Of a DNA stretch of 64,000 bases, positions 9,751-60,700 are shown one piece after another. The stretch is taken from NCBI RefSeq assembly GCF_964199755.1, contig NC_133901.1, forward strand, positions 26,810,397-26,874,396, in the 5' to 3' direction. The first letter of the stretch is position 1. Each line of letters opens with the position of its first letter. The translations under genes and the position numbers were made by a program. This DNA comes from Larus michahellis. Taxonomy: Eukaryota > Chordata > Aves > Charadriiformes > Laridae. Below the pieces are notes generated by a model that saw nothing but the letters and a program-made list of their open reading frames with translations, had not been told where the DNA came from and searched no databases.

Positions 9751-10170
9751 GTACACCGCTTGCAACCCCTACTTCACAAAGCTGAAGGCAAAAGGAAGGA
9801 GCGGGCGCCCCATGCCCATCCCTCGCACTACGCACGCAGCCCGGCTCTGGCTGGCACTCGCCCTCCTCCGAAGTACCCACGGGTCCCTGGGCGCTGGCTC
9901 TGCACTACCATGAAGAGAGACACCCGTCCTGCCCGTCCTCCCCCCGCCTCGGGCACCTCCTCGCTGCCGGCGGAGGGATGCGGACCGGCGGCCTCCACAG
10001 CGGGAGGGGCGGGGGGCGCTCTGGCTGCAGGCGCGCCAGCGGACGCGGGGCGAGGAGGTGGCGTAGGAAAAGGACTGGAAGTGGGAGGGAGACCGGTCAG
10101 AGGGGTCTGTCCCGGGAGATGGGTGGGGAGAGACAGCGGGCGAGCTGGGCTGGGCTGCAACGCCCCTCGC

Positions 10171-10177
10171 TATAAAG
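10171..10177 (+). promoter_or_regulatory. AGTR1: TATA box of the AGTR1 core promoter
   Basis: TATAAAG sits inside the CpG island, preceded by 'cgcccctcgc' and followed by purine-rich GC sequence. With normal 25-30 bp spacing, transcription would begin near 10200. A consensus donor lies about 120 bp farther on. The exact start site cannot be read from sequence. Confidence 0.65.
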
Positions 10178-10199
10178 GGAGCGGGAGGAGCGGTGCGGC

Positions 10200-10318
10200 C
10201 GGGCAGGGAGAGCGCGCAGAGCCCAGCCGAGTCCAGCCAGCGCCGTCGGGGCTGCGCCGCCCGCCCCAGCCGGGCTGCGGCCGCTCCTCGCCCCGGGGCC
10301 GGCCCTCCGCGGAGCCAG
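10200..10318 (+). other. AGTR1: AGTR1 non-coding exon 1 (5' UTR)
   Basis: This runs from the predicted start (about 28 bp after the TATA box) to a strong donor: GGAGCCAG then GTAAGGC, with the intron starting at 10319. The exon is very GC-rich and contains no ATG, so it adds no upstream reading frame. The next exon I can support is the coding exon, with acceptor at 30286/30287. Human AGTR1 also has alternatively spliced non-coding 5' exons, and further small exons could exist in between that I cannot recognise. The 5' boundary is an estimate; the 3' boundary follows the donor. Confidence 0.65.
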
Positions 10319-11040
10319 GTAAGGCGCGTCCCGCCGGCCGCCCCCGTGTGCCCGCCACCGGCTCTGCCGCGGGAGCCCGGCCGGCAGCCTGCCGTCCCGC
10401 CGGCCGCTTGGGACCACGCCGCCGGGCCCCGGGGGAAGGAAGGTGTTCGCGGTGTCTGGTACAGCCTCCCGCTGAATTTATACTTTGTTTAGATGAAGGC
10501 TCCGTGCCGGACAAAGAGCAGGCACATAAGCTCTGCGCCCTGGCTCGCCCTGCGAGGTCCATCCCACAGGTTTATTTTGGAGACAGCGAAGTGTCCCACA
10601 GGCTGTCAGCCGCACCGCGTGTGTGAGCTCTGGTGTCTCGTCAACAGTTTGAAGCTAGAGCAAAGGCAGCCTTTGACAGAGGGCACAGCGCTTGGAGCAG
10701 TGACACCTTCTCACCATCAAGGCTCTTCCCAGCAGCCCAGGAGAGGCAGCCCTGCTAGCGCTAGGCAAGATCTAGATGAGCACTTGAAATTTTCATTAAT
10801 GTGCTAAGCCCATGATAGAAATTAACAATAATAATTAAAAAAAAAAAATCACTAAAATCAATGCTGATTATTTTCTAGACTTTGTGCGAACAACTTACAC
10901 CTATTAGCAACTAGGATTGGTTTCATCAAAATTCTGTAGCGTACATGCTCCGTAACCAGACTTATCCCTCTTCGTACAGGAGAAAAAAAAAAATGGAGTG
11001 ATCTACAACCAGAGATTAAACTTTAGTTAAAAATGGGGGG

Positions 11041-30339: not shown

Positions 30340-31389
30340 ATGATTCCAAATTACTCTACTGAAGAAACAGTTAAAAGAATCCATGTCGACTGTCCCGTTT
30401 CGGGAAGGCACAATTACATCTACATTATGGTTCCAACTGTTTACAGCATCATCTTTATCATAGGCATATTTGGGAACAGCCTGGTCGTTATTGTCATTTA
30501 CTGCTACATGAAATTAAAAACAGTAGCCAGCATCTTTCTGCTAAACCTGGCACTGGCTGACTTGTGTTTTTTAATAACTCTGCCGCTCTGGGCAGCCTAC
30601 ACAGCCATGGAGTACCAGTGGCCATTCGGCAACTGTTTATGTAAGTTAGCGTCAGCAGGGATAAGTTTCAACCTGTATGCCAGCGTGTTCCTCCTCACAT
30701 GCCTCAGTATTGACCGGTACCTGGCCATAGTACATCCAGTGAAGTCCCGAATTCGACGTACCATGTTTGTGGCCAGAATAACTTGCATTGCCATCTGGCT
30801 TCTCGCCGGTGTGGCCAGTTTGCCTGTCATCATTCACCGCAACATATTCTTTGCTGAGAACTTGAACATGACAGTCTGCGGTTTTCGGTATGACAACAAT
30901 AACACAACGCTCCGGGTCGGATTGGGTTTATCCAAAAATTTGCTGGGCTTTTTAATTCCTTTTCTGATCATATTAACAAGCTACACCTTAATTTGGAAGA
31001 CTCTGAAGAAGGCATATCAAATTCAAAAAAATAAGACTAGAAATGATGATATTTTTAAGATGATTGTGGCAATAGTTTTTTTCTTCTTCTTTTCCTGGAT
31101 TCCTCATCAAGTGTTCACTTTTCTGGATGTACTAATTCAATTACATGTAATAACAGACTGCAAAATCACTGATATTGTGGACACGGCTATGCCATTCACC
31201 ATTTGCATTGCTTACTTTAACAACTGTTTGAATCCTTTTTTTTATGTGTTTTTTGGAAAAAACTTTAAAAAATACTTCCTTCAGCTGATAAAATACATTC
31301 CACCAAATGTCAGCGCACATCCAAGCCTAACAACAAAAATGAGCTCCCTCTCATATCGGCCACCAGAAAAATACACGCTTGCCCACTAA
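30340..31389 (+). CDS. AGTR1: Angiotensin II receptor type 1, with frameshifted C-terminus
   Basis: A class A G-protein-coupled receptor for angiotensin II in the plasma membrane; the family signals mainly through Gq/11 to phospholipase C in vascular, adrenal and renal cells. The intronless reading frame gives 349 residues and lines up with human AGTR1 without gaps through about residue 343. Visible hallmarks: glycosylation sequons at N4, N176 and N188; extracellular cysteines C18/C274 and C101/C180; N46 and D74 in helices 1 and 2; DRY at 125-127; K199 in helix 5, a ligand-binding lysine in the family; the helix-6 'FFSWIPHQ' block; NPFFY at 298-302; and a basic helix 8. Seven hydrophobic segments sit at about 28-52, 65-87, 103-124, 143-162, 193-214, 241-262 and 276-296. 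The last six residues (344-349) do not resemble the family. Skipping one A of the run 31367-31371 restores a family-like tail and exactly 359 residues, the usual length. This is either a real frameshift or a homopolymer error. Confidence 0.98.
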
Positions 31390-32060
31390 AAAGACTGCTG
31401 GGCCTTTCAACACCAAGTGATGTGTTTTGCAATATACTTTTTTTGAACAACCTTGTGAACGAAGCAGCAAGAATGACAAAATTCATCTGCAGTCCTGAAC
31501 ATCACAGCTTACTGCTCATTACAGAAACATGAGATCACCTCAGAGAAATCATGCTGTAAAGATTTTAGCAGTGGCCTTTTCTTTTACATTGTGAAGAGGA
31601 CTGCTTGGTTTTCATTTTGTTTTCCTTTACCGAAAACAACATAAATGGTGGACCGGCATGACATAGTTTCTGTCAGCATCCTGCCATTTACTCGAACTAC
31701 AAAAGAAGGGTACAGAAGACTCCTAAGTTCAGAGATCTCTTTAAAGAAAAAGCTTGTATAAATTACATGAATGATGAAAGACCTGTTTTGCACGTACATG
31801 AGCTATTCCAAATTTTGTTCAAGGAGCTGGTGGAGCTACACTGCTTGTTTTGTTGTTTTTTTAATGACATAAAAGGCATATCATTATATTTAGAACACAT
31901 TTTCAAATATATGCTATATAGAGAGGCCCAATTTTAAACTCAAATGGAAATTTAAGGTCCTTGAAATTGGTCTCATTCGATTTATGCTACTATTTTTCAT
32001 TTTAAAAAGTGGCAAATTTTTCATAATAATATATGCAATAAAATGCAGATTTATTTATTA
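31390..32060 (+). other. AGTR1: AGTR1 3' UTR
   Basis: AT-rich non-coding sequence follows the stop. In the restored frame the stop would be TGA at 31418-31420, so the UTR would start 31 bp later. The first good polyadenylation signal is AATAAA at 32037-32042, next to an AU-rich 'atttatttatta' block of the kind that can destabilise mRNA. Further AATAAA hexamers at 32172-32177 and 32452-32457 could give longer UTRs. No GCATTA core for the miR-155 site known in human AGTR1 was seen. Confidence 0.6.
32037..32042 (+). terminator. AGTR1: AGTR1 polyadenylation signal (first candidate)
   Basis: A canonical AATAAA about 650 bp after the stop, in AU-rich sequence. Which of the three AATAAA hexamers is used cannot be decided from sequence. 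Confidence 0.5.
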
Positions 32061-49489: not shown

Positions 49490-51535
49490 AGGCTTATTTA
49501 ATCCAGCAAATGCTTTGGTTTGTTTAGTCTAGCAAAAAAAAATCTAAAATGAGATAGGATTATTCCTCATAAATACATCATGGAAAGGCAAATGAAGCTA
49601 AAGGGTAATGCTGGTACACGAATAATTGAGTATCAGCTTATCATGAACAAAACTTAGGCTAAATTAAAAGGCAGTTTCCAACCATCAGAAGAGCAATGAT
49701 CAGAAACAGTTTTGCAACAGGAGTAGTGAGAGCACCAGCGAAAAGAGACCTAAGGTGGCACTTGATATGTTTGTGAACAGGATAACGCAGTATGGTGCCT
49801 GAGAAAGCAAGGAGGAAGCGTGTTCCCCTGGTGAACTGCATTACACAGCTCCTGATTTGGATGCATTCATCAATCTACAATATCAAGGGAAATAGCAAGG
49901 GAAATAGATACAAGACCAAGTTTGTGTGTATATTGAACATCCTGGAGGTCTGTAAATTAAATTGTTTTCCTGCTTTTACTCTGTTCTGGCAGCTTAAGGG
50001 AGTTTTTATTTAAGTAATACTTAGACATGCAGTAAGTAAATGTGAAAACACACACCTTGCAGGGTATCTAAGCATGCAAATATAAAACCTTTACTGATGA
50101 CCACATTTGTTTTAGACAGAACTGCACCTACTAATGAATTGAAAGTCTGCTGATTGACAGTGCATAGAGACAGAATGAGACTTTTCTAATCTGAGTCTCC
50201 CTATCACCTCTTATTCTCAACCTGGCTTCCCACTTCTAATCATGCCTTCAAAATTTCTTGTCTCTGTTTTACATCTGATCAGCCAGGGGATAAAGAAGAT
50301 CCAGCTGGAACTCATCGGCCTCAGTTTTTAAAGACTGTTTCTAAATTTTCTGGTCAGCGTGTTGGCTGAACTGCTTTGCCACCCAATTTGAACCGTCGCT
50401 TTTCCATGAACCTGCTGATGCCAAATCTTACACAAAATGCTGTGTTTCACAAACAGCATTTTTTCAGCTCAGATATCCTCATTTTACTGAGAGGAAAGCT
50501 CTAAGCCAGAGCAATTATCTCACTTCTGCCAGACCATACAATAGAAATGCAGAGCATATTACAGCAACCTTTAATATATCAGTTTCAGCATGTTAACAGT
50601 TACCCTGAATATGCAGAAAAACCTGCAGCAAGCTTTCATCGAGACTTAAATTAGCAAATCTTCGTTGCTTTGCCCTGTGCTACATGGCCTCATGAGCTCA
50701 AGAGCCTGAAATATTAGGCAACGCTTCTCCATGCTCCATTTATTAGTGAAGAGGGTTTATACGGGTTTGGAAATGTCACCATCCCAACAAACCCCTGTAA
50801 ACACTACCAGGATGAAAGTATGAATAGCAACTCACCCTGAAGACATCTAAGGGCTTTCCTTCTGTAAAAAGTCTTAGAAAGTCTATAAATCCACTCCTCT
50901 GTAAAGTATCATGGAGTTCTGCACTATTGGATTTTTCCTATGGGCCTAGGTATTCTTTCAGCAGTGCTGTTAGTCAAACCTCTCACCTACAAATTACACT
51001 GCTACTGAATACATGAGAGTCCTTTCCTATATGTCACAAGAACTGGAAATCTTAAACATAAACAAATAAAATAATTTCAAAAATTAAAATCCAAATATTA
51101 TATGTTGCATTAATAAATTATTTTCATGTGTCATTTACTAAAAGCATGATGAATCTCTCCAGAAAATTAAACTCTGCTCTTCCAAGTTTCAATCAAATCT
51201 TAACTTCCAGTAAAGCAAGTAATAAAAAAATTACCTCTCCTTTAATCTTAAATACCTCTACATTTAGCATAATTTGGAAGGCTTATCCTGGGATTGCGTA
51301 AACCTCTCAGGGGTACTTTTCATGCCTGCTAAACATAGGAATGGTCTGTCTCATACAACGTACACCCCATTGGCCTGCTCCACGTGGATCACTCATGAGG
51401 AACAGGGCTTTCCATTCGCACATGCTGAAGCATCAATCTAAAGACCTTAAAATGGCCAGAGGGAAAGGGGAAAGTTTCTGCATCTTAAGGGTGCTGGGAT
51501 GTGACTGGCAACCTTACTGGCTTTTATATTTCTGG

Positions 51536-51690
51536 TTTTATTATATTTCTGTTTATATTCTGTTATATTATTTCTCTTTATATTTATACATATATATTTT
51601 ATATATATACACAAATATATAATATATATAATATATATTATATTATATATAATATATATAATAATAATATATATAATATTTACCCCTGAC
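51536..51690. repeat. AT-dinucleotide/trinucleotide microsatellite tract
   Basis: About 150 bp almost free of G and C, made of TATAT, TATTAT and ATAAT units in irregular order with many self-complementary stretches. The Tyr/Ile-rich open frames here on both strands are artefacts of the repeat. Confidence 0.95.
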
Positions 51691-56140: not shown

Positions 56141-56929
56141 CATAGAATCATGGAATAGTTTGGGTAGGAAGGCACCTTTAAAGGCCATCTAGTCCAACTC
56201 ACCTGCAATAAGCAGGGACATCTTCAAATAGATGAGGTTGCTTTGAGCCTCATCCAACCTGACCTTGAATGTTTCCAGGGTGAGGCATCTAGGACTCCTC
56301 TGGGCAACCTGTTCCAGTGTTTCACCACCCTCATTGTAAAAAATGTCTTCCTTATATCTAGTCTAAGTCTACTCTCTTTTAGTTTAAAACAATTACCCCC
56401 TGACCTACCGGAACAGGCCCTGCTTAAAAGTTTGTCCCCATCTTTCCTGTAGGCCTCCTTTAAGTACCGAAAGGCTGCAATAAGGTCTCCCTGGAGCTTT
56501 CTCTTCTCCAGGCTGAACAACCCCAACCTCTCAGCCTGTCCTCGTAGGAGAGGTGCCCCGGCCCTCTGATCATTTCTCTGGCCCTCGTCTGGACCCGCTC
56601 CAACAGGTCCATGTCTTTCCTGTGCTGAGGGCCCCAGAGCTGGACACAGGACTCCAGGGTGGGGTGTCCTCAGGGCGAAAACAGAGGGGCGGAATCACCT
56701 CCCTTGGCCTGCTGGCCACACTTCTTTTGATGCAGCCCAGGATATTGTTGTCGTTCTGGGCTGTGAGCGCATGTTGTTGGCTCATGTCCAGCTTCTCTTC
56801 CACCAGTACCCCCAAATCCTTCCCAGCAGGGCTGCTCTCAATCCCTTCATCCCCCAGCCTCTGTTGATACTGGGGGTTTCCCCTACCCAGGTGCAGGACC
56901 CAGCTTTTCTTCCACCAGTACCCCCAAGT
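56141..56929 (-). mobile_element. CR1 LINE, 5'-truncated copy A
   Basis: A minus-strand CR1 non-LTR retrotransposon. Its 3' end lies at 56141 with the CR1-type 'catagaatcatggaatag' terminus. Reading leftwards, the minus strand encodes the end of ORF2 after the reverse transcriptase: about 56869-56720 has '[11 protein letters not shown]' and '[12 protein letters not shown]' type blocks, and about 56526-56290 has '[19 protein letters not shown]' through 'MRVVKHWNRLPRGV'. Frameshifts and a loss between these blocks make it inactive. The 5' part of the element is missing. Its 5' end carries a 30-bp segment (56901-56930) repeating 56789-56818 of the same element with 28/30 identity. The start of copy B follows immediately. 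Confidence 0.95.
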
Positions 56930-57905
56930 CATAGAATCACAAAATGGTAGGGGTTGGAAGGGACCTCTGGAGATCATCTAGTCCAATCCCCCTGCCAGAG
57001 CAGGGTCACCCAGAGCAGGTTGCACAGGGATGCGTCCAGGCAGGTTTGCAATGTCTCCAGAGATGGAGACTCCACCACCTCTCTGGGCAGCCTGTTCCAG
57101 CGCTCTGCCACCCTCAAAGTAAAGTTCCTCCTCATGTTTAGGTGGAATTTCCTATGCTCAAGTTTGTGCCCATTCCCTCTTGTCCTGGCACCACCGAAAA
57201 GAGCCTGGCCCCATCCTCCTGATACCCACCCTTAAAGTATTTATAAGCGCTGATAAGATCCCCCCTCAGACGTCTTTTTTCCAGACTGAAGAGACCCAAA
57301 TCCTTCAGCCTTTCTTCATAAGAGAGGTGTTCCAGTCCCCTAATCATCTTGGTAGCCCTTTGCTCTACCCTCTCCAGCAGTTCCCTGTCCCTCTTGAGCC
57401 GGGGAGCCCAGAACTGGACACAGTACTCCAGGTGCGGCCTCACCAAGGCAGAGTAGAGGGGGAGGATGACCTCCCTCAACCTGCTTGCCAGCCCCCTCTC
57501 GGCAGGGCTGCTCTTGATCCCTTTGTCTCCCAGCCTGTGCTGGTACCAGGGGTTGCCCCAACCCAGTTGTAGGACCCTGCACTTGTCCTTGTTGAACCTC
57601 ATGAGGTTCACATGGGCCCACTTCTCGAGCTTGTCCAAGTCCCTCTGGATGGCATCCCATCCCTCAGGTGTGCCAGCTGCACCACTCAGCTTGGTGTCAT
57701 CCACAAACTTGCTGAAGTGCACTCATTCCCACTATCTATGTCACTGATGAAGATATTAAACAGTACCGGTCCCAATATGGACCCCTGAGGGACACCACTT
57801 GTCACTGATCTCCATCTGGACATTGAGCCGTTGACCACTACCCTCTGGATTACACCATCCAACCAATTCCTCATCCACTGAACAGTCTGAGGAAATCTGC
57901 ATCTA
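56930..57905 (-). mobile_element. CR1 LINE, 5'-truncated copy B
   Basis: A second minus-strand CR1 copy of a different subfamily, with 3' terminus 'catagaatcacaaaatgg' at 56930, directly abutting copy A. It encodes the C-terminal half of the reverse transcriptase: '[19 protein letters not shown]' and the RT block '[18 protein letters not shown]' near 57870-57755; an '[10 protein letters not shown]' block, the catalytic YADD/FADD motif here reading FVDD; then '[18 protein letters not shown]' and '[17 protein letters not shown]'. A frame change separates the first and second blocks. Compared with copy A, about 32 codons are missing near 57495-57503. The element is dead. The 5' boundary near 57905 is approximate. 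Confidence 0.95.
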
Positions 57906-60700
57906 CTGAAACTCCTAGAAAAAGATACATTATTTATCCTCAGACTTTTGGAGTTGGTTTGGTAACAAATGGGATGAAAGGCTTCAGAGGACAAGGGATG
58001 CTTCTGAAATGCTAATGTTGATGTGCATTTTTTCCTTTTATCAGGCTGCAGTTAGCCTTCATAAGCTTTTCAAAGTGGAGTACCAGAGTATTTCTGTTCC
58101 TAAAACTGAAATAAGAAATTACTACAAAAATGAATTTCGGCTGGAATACAGCCAATTATTAGCATCAAAACTTTTTACAGCTCATGTCACTAAACACAGG
58201 GAATACTGCTTGTGAGTGACAACATCATAGAAGGCTTTATTTTAATCATCAAAAACAGCAAACAACTGCAACAAAATTGCAATAACTGACAATTTTTTCA
58301 GCTGTGCTCACCTTAAGTATAAGATAAAATACATACCCTGAAGGAAAATACCACACACTCTCCTTTCAGGATTCAGCTGCTTTTGTTACTTTCTTGATTA
58401 GAGAAAATCAAATCTTTTTGAATCTTTTCAAAGATATAGGTAATACTAGCCTCTGCACTCAGTGTTAAGTAACAAAGGCCAAGGTTTACTCAGCCATGGC
58501 CAACTGATGTGCTGTTGGCTTGTACTCAGGCACTAAAAAGAACAGATGGCTTAACCAAATTTAATTTGCTATTTTATTTATTCTTATGCTGCCTCTTTGA
58601 CATACAAATATTAAACATTTATATTATAAAGTTAGAAAAACAAGACAAATTTTAAAGCTACTTTATGAGCCAATCTGACAAAAAATCATCAATTCTGAGA
58701 TGTAAAATAAGTCACTAAAGTAGGATTCTAGGTCATTGGTTTTTTTCTGACATAGTCTGGGATGGAAACAGCAAAGACTGCCATTAGAAATGATATTATT
58801 CAGTAACGATTGCCAGCTTAGTAGTTGATGTCAGTATTGCTGTGTCAGTGATTATTTGGAGAAAAAAAAACCCACCATACAACAAAAATCCCCCATCATC
58901 TCCTAACGCATGAAAAAGCAAAGAATTTCTTAAAAGTAAACTCACGCATTGAAATCTGGCAGTCTTCTATTTCCAAGATGCTTCTCAGTGCTCAACAGAG
59001 AATGATGACATCTGCAATTTGTTTGATTACTTCTTGTGATCACTTATTCATTGCAAGATCTGGGCTTGATCATCTCCCCAGTATTGTCTTAGCAGCGTTC
59101 ATGGGATCAGACCATTTTATGTGATACTGTAGATCTCATCATTGTAAAATTAAAACTTCTGACGACTTTGCGGTATTGTTTTGGCACTCTGTCAGAATAA
59201 CTCCTGCTGTCATCCTTCTTAGGAGACTTGACTCTAAGTAGGATTATTACTGTGCAAGAGCCTACAGTGCTACAAATTAGATCATTAATTGTAAAGTAAG
59301 TTCAAACCCTATGATTTGGCAAAGATAGTTTTGGATAAATAGGCTCATTGTAGTTTTGGAGTCTTCCTTTAGGAACATATTCATCACGGGTCATATTGTT
59401 AAGCATAAACTCCTGCACATTTGGTACACTGATTTTAAAAATATATTTCTAGGTATTCTGTATATAAGGCTGCCACAGCTTCACTGAGTTGACTCCAGAG
59501 AACCTCATAAAAAATTAAGTGCAGAGTCTGATGCCACATTCATTCTTAAAATGGTCATTGACAATTCAAATTTCTGCACTTTGTAACTATGTTTTTTAAT
59601 CTGAGATTAATATATATTAATTTTCTAATAAATTTTCACATATTAAGTCATATGCATATATATAGATTTCTGCAAAATAGCAGACATGGTGTCAAAGAAC
59701 ATCTTCAAGATTATCTGTGTCTGAACCCCTTTAATTTGTCTGGTCACTTAGGGATAACAGAAGACAGAAGTGAGCTCATAAATTCCATTCTTTATATATT
59801 TATACACCGATTCATTTAGAAGCTCACAGTTGAAAACAGCAGTCACCTCAGGACAGAGCAGCAACAGACAATTAACATTACATTTAATGCCAAGTATCCG
59901 TTAATGAAAACTAAACAGATGCAAGTGCAGTGATGCAAACACACCATTGTTTCTCAGATAGTTTAGGCACAAAGTAAAAGGTAAAGATAAAAAAGCTTTT
60001 GTATGACTACATTTCATTTAATCTTCTTTTCTTACATGTCATGCCCACGGTGGTGCTTAATTTAAAAGATATATACCTCTGGTCCTTACATGATTAAATT
60101 AGAGAACATGCGAGAATCAGCGAATATATTATGTGGATTATTAATACAACTCCACTGCAACTACACCCTCAGTTCTGCAGACACTGGCTTGCTTATAAGT
60201 TTCAGTGAAGTGACTGAACATAGAACAAGTTCAGTACTTTTCTTCTCTGTTGGGGGAAAAAAAAAAGATAATTGGTACATCCCAACTGTGTTTCCTCTTT
60301 CTTTGTCAGAGTCAGGCCCATATTATTCAGGAAGAGGGACAATGCTGTGTGATTATCAGTCACACTGCAACAACCCCGATAGACATCTATCATTACATAA
60401 AGTAACAATAAAGTATTATAAAGTAAAGCTTGTAATCCAGCAATCAAATGATTAAATAATCAAAGTTCATCTACAACAGAAAAGAATAAAGTAAATTAAA
60501 TTCACTTTCTCATATCAAGAGTTTATCCAGCTCAAGTGGCAAGATTCTTTAGCCAGCCCCCCTTGAGACTTTCATCTGTTTTCACAGGTGTGGAGTAAAA
60601 CACACATTACAAATAGTATGCAAATAAAACAAGGCCAAGGGTATAATCTATCAGTTGATCAGTGGGTTGTTCTGGTGTACAATTGATAAAAAGCAGGACA
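57905..60700. other. Intergenic DNA between the CR1 pair and CPB1
   Basis: AT-rich DNA with no recognised gene or repeat family. A short open frame at 58046-58215, preceded by a good pyrimidine tract and AG, is mentioned in the findings but has no known homology. Proximal CPB1 control elements probably lie in the last 200 bp. Confidence 0.55.
60573..60590. promoter_or_regulatory. CPB1: E-box pair upstream of CPB1
   Basis: CATCTG (60573-60578) and CAGGTG (60585-60590) lie about 150 bp before the predicted CPB1 start site. Acinar-cell digestive enzyme genes are typically driven by PTF1, whose site includes a CACCTG-type E-box. The accompanying TTTCCC-type half is not clearly present, so this is only a candidate. 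Confidence 0.3.

What the first reader, a model, noticed from the sequence alone, without database searches (positions are those of the whole stretch)
31366..31420. AGTR1 C-terminal tail looks frameshifted by one extra A
The receptor aligns gap-free with the family to residue 343, then reads six unrelated residues and stops at 349. Reading on after skipping one base of the five-A run at 31367-31371 gives the tail [16 protein letters not shown] and a TGA at 31418-31420. That is exactly 359 residues, the usual AGTR1 length, and it contains the T-K-K block seen in the human tail (S-T-K-K). A chance match in length and motif is unlikely. If real, the bird's receptor lacks the distal tail, including a serine/threonine-type regulatory site used for phosphorylation and desensitisation in mammals. 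If not, it is an indel error in a homopolymer.
Basis: partly seen in the sequence, partly recalled or inferred. Interest (0 to 1): 0.75.

Follow-up and report, generated by a model that had tools for sequence, protein, structure and literature searches.

The report
One-base shift ends bird AGTR1 early
In this bird assembly one extra A near the end of the angiotensin receptor gene swaps its last 16 residues for 6 others; it is either a tolerated real variant or a one-base assembly error, and in either case the core of the receptor and its main regulatory sites are untouched.

Summary
The AGTR1 frame (30340-31389) encodes 349 residues. It aligns without gaps to human AT1R up to the A5 run at 31367-31371, then reads KYTLAH and stops. 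With one A skipped, the frame runs to a TGA at 31418-31420: 359 residues, gap-free to residue 356. This hidden tail matches human at 6 of 13 positions, which shuffles almost never reach. So there is a net +1 insertion relative to the ancestral frame.

Whether the bird or the assembly carries it cannot be settled: no reads and no other bird orthologue were available. A baseline leans slightly to a real allele. In two receptor searches of the genome (117 and 150 matches) I found no one-base frame break and one broken core of another kind. Longer homopolymers in AGTR1 stay in frame, and the shift sits in the last 4.5% of the coding sequence.

The functional claim is overstated. The main phosphorylation cluster (human 332-338) is kept as T332/S335/S336/S338. 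The lost stretch corresponds to the minor human cluster 346-SSST-349, where even the restored bird tail has only T349. Low interest unless the state proves fixed.

The parts
30340..31389 (+). AGTR1 coding frame as assembled, 349 aa, ATG to TAA
   Evidence: Pfam 7tm_1 237.3 bits
31367..31371 (+). A5 run where the frame departs from the family by +1
31369..31389 (+). novel six codons K-Y-T-L-A-H and TAA stop
   Evidence: 0 of 6 match the human tail
31369..31420 (+). hidden ancestral tail [16 protein letters not shown] and TGA in the +1 frame (one A of the run is not counted)
31333..31353 (+). codons 332-338 T-K-M-S-S-L-S, equivalent of human phosphorylation Motif II, intact upstream of the shift
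   Evidence: motif numbering from PMC12386296

Best explanation
The sequenced bird carries a real one-base insertion (A4 to A5, replication slippage) in the last 5% of the AGTR1 coding sequence. It may be a segregating allele or a recent lineage-specific change. The product is a 349-aa receptor with an intact 7TM core, DRY and NPxxY motifs, the YIPP stretch and the main phosphorylation cluster, but with the last 16 residues replaced by KYTLAH. The stop lies in the same exon, 31 bases before the ancestral stop, so the mRNA should escape nonsense-mediated decay. I infer near-normal Gq signalling and arrestin recruitment, with at most mild changes in distal-tail functions such as ATRAP binding (that ATRAP needs region 339-359 is recalled, not seen). 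Shown: the sequence state, the hidden tail, the retained motifs, and one copy in this assembly by DNA search. Inferred: that the base is real, and its effect.
For: The hidden tail is homologous to the human tail. One-base frame breaks look rare in this assembly. With AGTR1 as query, 98 of 117 matches span at least 241 query residues in one frame without stops (97 without AGTR1, 83.8 kb). With Pfam 7tm_1, 127 of 150 matches run from model position 1-2 to 256-260 in one frame (counted). The remaining 19 and 23 rows were all looked at (fetched, or one frame by the tables): none shows a one-base break, one (L039) has a broken core. 29 other receptor frames hold 136 homopolymer runs of 5 or more, and AGTR1 keeps T8, T7 and A7 runs in frame. 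An error placed at random falls in the last 16 of 359 codons only 4.5% of the time, whereas real frameshift indels in chickens lie more often near protein ends (PMC4563830, passages). DNA search finds one copy, so a duplicate or retrocopy is not the source.
Against: No reads, RNA-seq or second individual were available. The hidden tail still ends at the family position with a recognisable sequence, so the shift is recent or not real. Short indels were the commonest error of CLR-based long-read assemblies (PMC8081667, passages; fewer than 3% of genes had frame-shift base errors once the initial goals were met). The baseline only bounds the error rate: zero one-base breaks in 83.8 kb gives a 95% upper limit of 0.036 per kb, about 0.057 if L039 is counted as one event (worked out by hand), so one error here is quite possible. 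The one-frame cores were selected for being in one frame, and only the best candidates were scored (116 of 679, 147 of 1129), so broken genes could be under-sampled.
Confidence: 0.57

Rival explanations
1. Sequencing or assembly error: one A was added to a run of four; the bird's receptor is an ordinary 359-aa AGTR1 ending [16 protein letters not shown].
For: The hidden tail is intact to the family stop and similar to human. The change is a single base in a homopolymer; short indels are the commonest error of CLR-based assemblies (PMC8081667, passages). The baseline does not exclude it. One other receptor, L039, has a core broken in frame, which may itself be an assembly fault.
Against: No other one-base break was found among the receptor matches of two searches. 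Longer runs in the same frame are intact. The change falls in the tolerant last 4.5% of the coding sequence.
Confidence: 0.39
2. The 349-residue form is the fixed, normal form in a whole clade of birds, with the distal tail lost under relaxed constraint.
For: Not excluded by any search. From recall only, the galliform tail differs from the hidden tail at a few of its 16 positions, which would fit relaxed constraint but also a tail that is always variable.
Against: The hidden tail and its stop persist, so any fixation would be recent. No bird orthologue could be found in the collections.
Confidence: 0.2
3. Recoding: +1 ribosomal frameshifting or transcript slippage at the A run restores the 359-residue protein.
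For: The restored frame is open and homologous.
Against: A5 is short for slippage (general knowledge). No structure beyond chance around the site: fold of 31340-31440 has z-score -0.38, 62 of 200 shuffles fold at least as well. No Rfam match in the window at gathering threshold.
Confidence: 0.02

Closest known systems
Angiotensin II type 1 receptor, AGTR1/AT1R (human, PDB 9q0f)
   Same: Gap-free over residues 2-344 as read; best solved relative at 624.1 bits against 216.7 for the best type 2 receptor chain; DRY, NPxxY, YIPP and S/T at the four Motif II positions kept.
   Different: The last 16 residues are replaced by six as assembled; at the Motif III positions (human 346-SSST-349) the bird has T-L-A-H as read, or R-L-P-T if restored.
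Engineered AT1R tail truncation (rat AT1a cut after S331, PMC2994726, passages seen)
   Same: Loss of distal C-tail residues from an otherwise intact AT1 receptor.
   Different: That cut removes Motif II; it about halved surface expression, raised IP potency and lowered arrestin2 recruitment (potency ratio 0.3, maximum 0.8). The bird form keeps Motif II and stops at 349, so the effect should be smaller (inference).
Frameshift indels near protein ends in chicken lines (PMC4563830, passages)
   Same: Small insertion close to the C-terminus, a position class where frameshift indels are found more often than non-frameshift ones.
   Different: Those were called from reads in several lines; here only one assembled sequence is available.

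Membership tests
AGTR1 (AT1 receptor) | Best match to AT1R over AT2R and other peptide receptors | tested here: met
   9q0f 624.1 bits against AT2R 216.7 bits
AGTR1 (AT1 receptor) | Class A 7TM core with DRY and NPxxY | tested here: met
   Pfam 7tm_1 237.3 bits, residues 45-302; D125 R126 Y127, N298 P299 Y302
AGTR1 (AT1 receptor) | YIPP stretch and proximal Ser/Thr cluster in the tail | tested here: met
   Y319-P322; T332, S335, S336, S338
AGTR1 (AT1 receptor) | 359-residue length with the family's distal tail | tested here: not met
   349 residues, last six unrelated, as assembled; usual length, not a requirement for being AGTR1
AGTR1 (AT1 receptor) | Single full-length locus in its usual neighbourhood | tested here: met
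   One DNA match in the genome; five carboxypeptidase M14 exon matches 3.6-17.8 kb beyond the window end on the same contig; that such genes neighbour AGTR1 is recalled
AGTR1 (AT1 receptor) | Binds angiotensin II and couples to Gq | not testable with these tools
   needs expression and assay
Real fixed frameshift variant | Same A5 in reads, other individuals or relatives | not testable with these tools
   no reads and no bird relatives held; searches found none

The most novel reading that the evidence does not exclude
This bird's lineage has fixed a frameshift that replaces the distal tail of its only AGTR1. That would make a natural distal-tail variant of a key blood-pressure receptor, with the old tail still readable in the +1 frame and the partner protein ATRAP still encoded (two AGTRAP exon matches).
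Probability: 0.2. Interest if true: 0.4.

Novelty: new variant of a known kind. Interest (0 to 1): 0.2.

Why it matters
If real and fixed, it is a natural experiment on what the last 16 residues of AT1R do in vivo, in an otherwise conserved receptor whose mutation in humans is among the causes of renal tubular dysgenesis (PMC12289354, start of abstract seen). If it is an error, it is a reminder that tail truncations in bird receptor genes need read support. In both cases the main desensitisation cluster is intact, so strong physiological claims are not warranted.

Tried and rejected
Chance: rejected by the residue match of the hidden tail, though the exact length alone is only a 2% coincidence. 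Duplicate, haplotig or retrocopy: rejected at the sensitivity of one DNA search. Programmed recoding: no supporting structure. Local repeat-driven change: no direct or inverted repeats found in 31200-31500. Bird orthologues: none in genome contigs (113 pattern stretches, none confirmed), in viral contigs (12 stretches, none confirmed), or as tail peptides in papers (0 papers). Papers on bird AGTR1: one search listed 20 of 50, one search listed 3 of 3 (with the word frameshift), one search listed 15 of 272; none looked relevant to a bird AGTR1 frameshift from title and start of abstract, and none of these was opened. The ATRAP binding residues were not found in the listings or the passages. PMC9516821 (passages) ties false indels of older assemblies to GC-rich 5' regions, which does not describe this site, but says nothing of this assembly. 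The bacterial promoter/terminator scan has no bearing on a bird gene.

Partial receptor matches, all rows. One search has 19 partial rows. Eight were fetched: three (L032, L034, L035) show two parts of the core 269, 700 and 1,086 bases apart, read as introns; four (L033, L036, L037, L038) show one part of the core (L036 with a further 12-bit scrap), read as single exons, which is not proof; one (L039) has a core broken within 62 bases, with about 65 model positions missing. Three more (L042-L044) were fetched: L042 shows one part, L043 and L044 two parts more than 1 kb apart. The other eight rows are in one frame by the tables. One search has 23 rows that are not full length: 19 rows lie in the 18 loci and 4 rows are two genes whose parts share one open frame by the table. 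In those 18 loci the parts found either share one open frame, lie about 0.9 kb or more apart, or stand alone; one row carries an internal TAA, and its parts share a 309-codon frame. One search picked wrong frames for several loci because strand was ignored; its run counts were discarded and one search replaces them. The odds did not change.

Full report
What is there. The AGTR1 coding exon starts at 30340 after a pyrimidine tract and an AG acceptor seen by eye. The frame encodes 349 residues and stops at 31387-31389. Human AT1R (PDB 9q0f) is the best solved relative, at 624.1 bits over residues 2-344 without a gap; the best type 2 receptor chain scores 216.7 bits.

The shift. The as-read end, KYTLAH, matches the human tail at 0 of 6 columns. 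Skipping one A of the A5 run at 31367-31371 gives 359 residues with the tail [16 protein letters not shown] and TGA at 31418-31420. The ungapped alignment to human then reaches residue 356 and gains 9.8 bits. 6 of 13 tail columns are identical to human; 0.019% of 200,000 shuffles of the tail reach this, and 9 of 30,800 open 13-codon stretches elsewhere on the + strand reach its BLOSUM62 score. So the +1 frame is the ancestral one and the assembled sequence carries a net one-base insertion. The exact length of 359 adds little, because 47 of the 55 one-base deletions tried near the end give it.

Real or error. I could not see reads, a second haplotype or another bird: DNA search of the genome gives one AGTR1, and the collections and papers searched gave no orthologue. 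I therefore looked at how often receptor frames break in this assembly. Searching the genome with AGTR1 gave 117 matches; 98 span at least 241 query residues in one frame with no stop, that is 97 cores and 83.8 kb without AGTR1. In the Pfam 7tm_1 search 127 of 150 matches run from model position 1-2 to 256-260 in one frame (counted; many are the same genes). The 19 and 23 rows left over were then examined: 26 loci fetched, the rest judged from the tables (details in Tried and rejected). None shows a one-base break between adjoining parts; one, L039, has the two ends of its core in different frames with about 65 model positions missing in between. Zero one-base breaks in 83.8 kb gives a 95% upper limit of 0.036 per kb, below 0.039 for a 1,080-base coding sequence; counting L039 as one event it is about 0.057 per kb (by hand). 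29 other receptor frames hold 136 runs of five or more equal bases (these frames are open by selection), and AGTR1 itself keeps T8, T7 and A7 runs in frame. Limits: only the best candidates were scored (116 of 679 and 147 of 1129), so halves of a broken gene could rank too low to be seen; single parts were read as exons without proof; and the tails were not judged.

Reading of the baseline. A random error would fall in the last 16 of 359 codons 4.5% of the time and would favour the longer runs. A real frameshift in a receptor under selection would be expected there: frameshift indels in chicken lines lie more often near protein ends than non-frameshift ones (PMC4563830, passages). Against that, short indels were the commonest error of CLR-based assemblies, with fewer than 3% of genes showing frame-shift base errors when the initial goals, Q40 among them, were met (PMC8081667, passages). 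My estimate is 0.57 for a real allele, including 0.2 for a fixed lineage state; 0.39 for error; 0.02 for recoding. This is judgement, not a calculation.

Consequence if real. PMC12386296 (passages) divides the human AT1R tail into Motif I (326-331), Motif II (332-338) and Motif III (346-349). With AngII, Motif II was the main target of GRK2, 5 and 6; mutation of Motif III gave no significant reduction with GRK2 and moderate decreases with GRK5/6; GRK3 showed no pronounced differences. What the paper found for arrestin binding of the mutants with GRK5/6 was cut off in the passages I saw. By gap-free numbering the bird keeps S/T at 332, 335, 336 and 338, and at 331 of Motif I (326 is A, 328 is P). 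At Motif III it has T-L-A-H as read, or R-L-P-T if restored. So the shift exchanges one S/T for another in a region that is already poor in them at those positions, and removes the T-K-K block and the last residues. A much deeper cut, after S331 of rat AT1a, about halved surface expression, raised IP potency and lowered arrestin2 recruitment to 0.3 in potency and 0.8 in maximum (PMC2994726, passages); a smaller effect is expected here (inference). ATRAP was isolated with the AT1R tail as bait (PMC7131980, passages) and two AGTRAP exon matches are present in this genome; that ATRAP needs residues 339-359 is recalled and was not found in a paper. Nonsense-mediated decay is not expected, because the new stop lies in the same exon only 31 bases before the old one (inference). 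Programmed frameshifting has no support (fold z-score -0.38).

Verdict. An ordinary kind of variant or error, with low interest unless reads and relatives show that it is fixed.

Noticed in passing
L039 (G000:C17:500000-506000), about 2138-2943 on the minus strand: A very GC-rich class A receptor, resembling an apelin-type receptor by eye only, whose first part and last third lie in different frames with about 65 model positions (around TM4 and the following loop) missing within 62 bases: pseudogene, assembly collapse or true deletion.
   Followed up: partly
window 56224-57994, minus strand: Broken reading frames that look like a LINE-type element; one piece (57686-57994) matches reverse transcriptase RVT_1 (33.3 bits), the three other pieces tested had no Pfam match. 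The CR1 label is recalled.
   Followed up: partly
window 9751-10750: CpG-island-like block (GC 0.59-0.76, CpG observed/expected 0.50-0.94 against 0.39 and 0.26 for the window), about 20 kb upstream of the AGTR1 coding exon; possibly a promoter and first exon of AGTR1.
   Followed up: no
G000:C10:26877995-26892186, 3.6-17.8 kb beyond the window end: Five peptidase M14 exon matches on the + strand, probably a carboxypeptidase neighbour of AGTR1. AGTR1 lies on a 74-Mb contig, long for the chromosome that carries it in chicken (recalled), which hints at a chromosome fusion.
   Followed up: no
window 51524-51682: AT-rich tandem repeat array with several overlapping periods.
   Followed up: no
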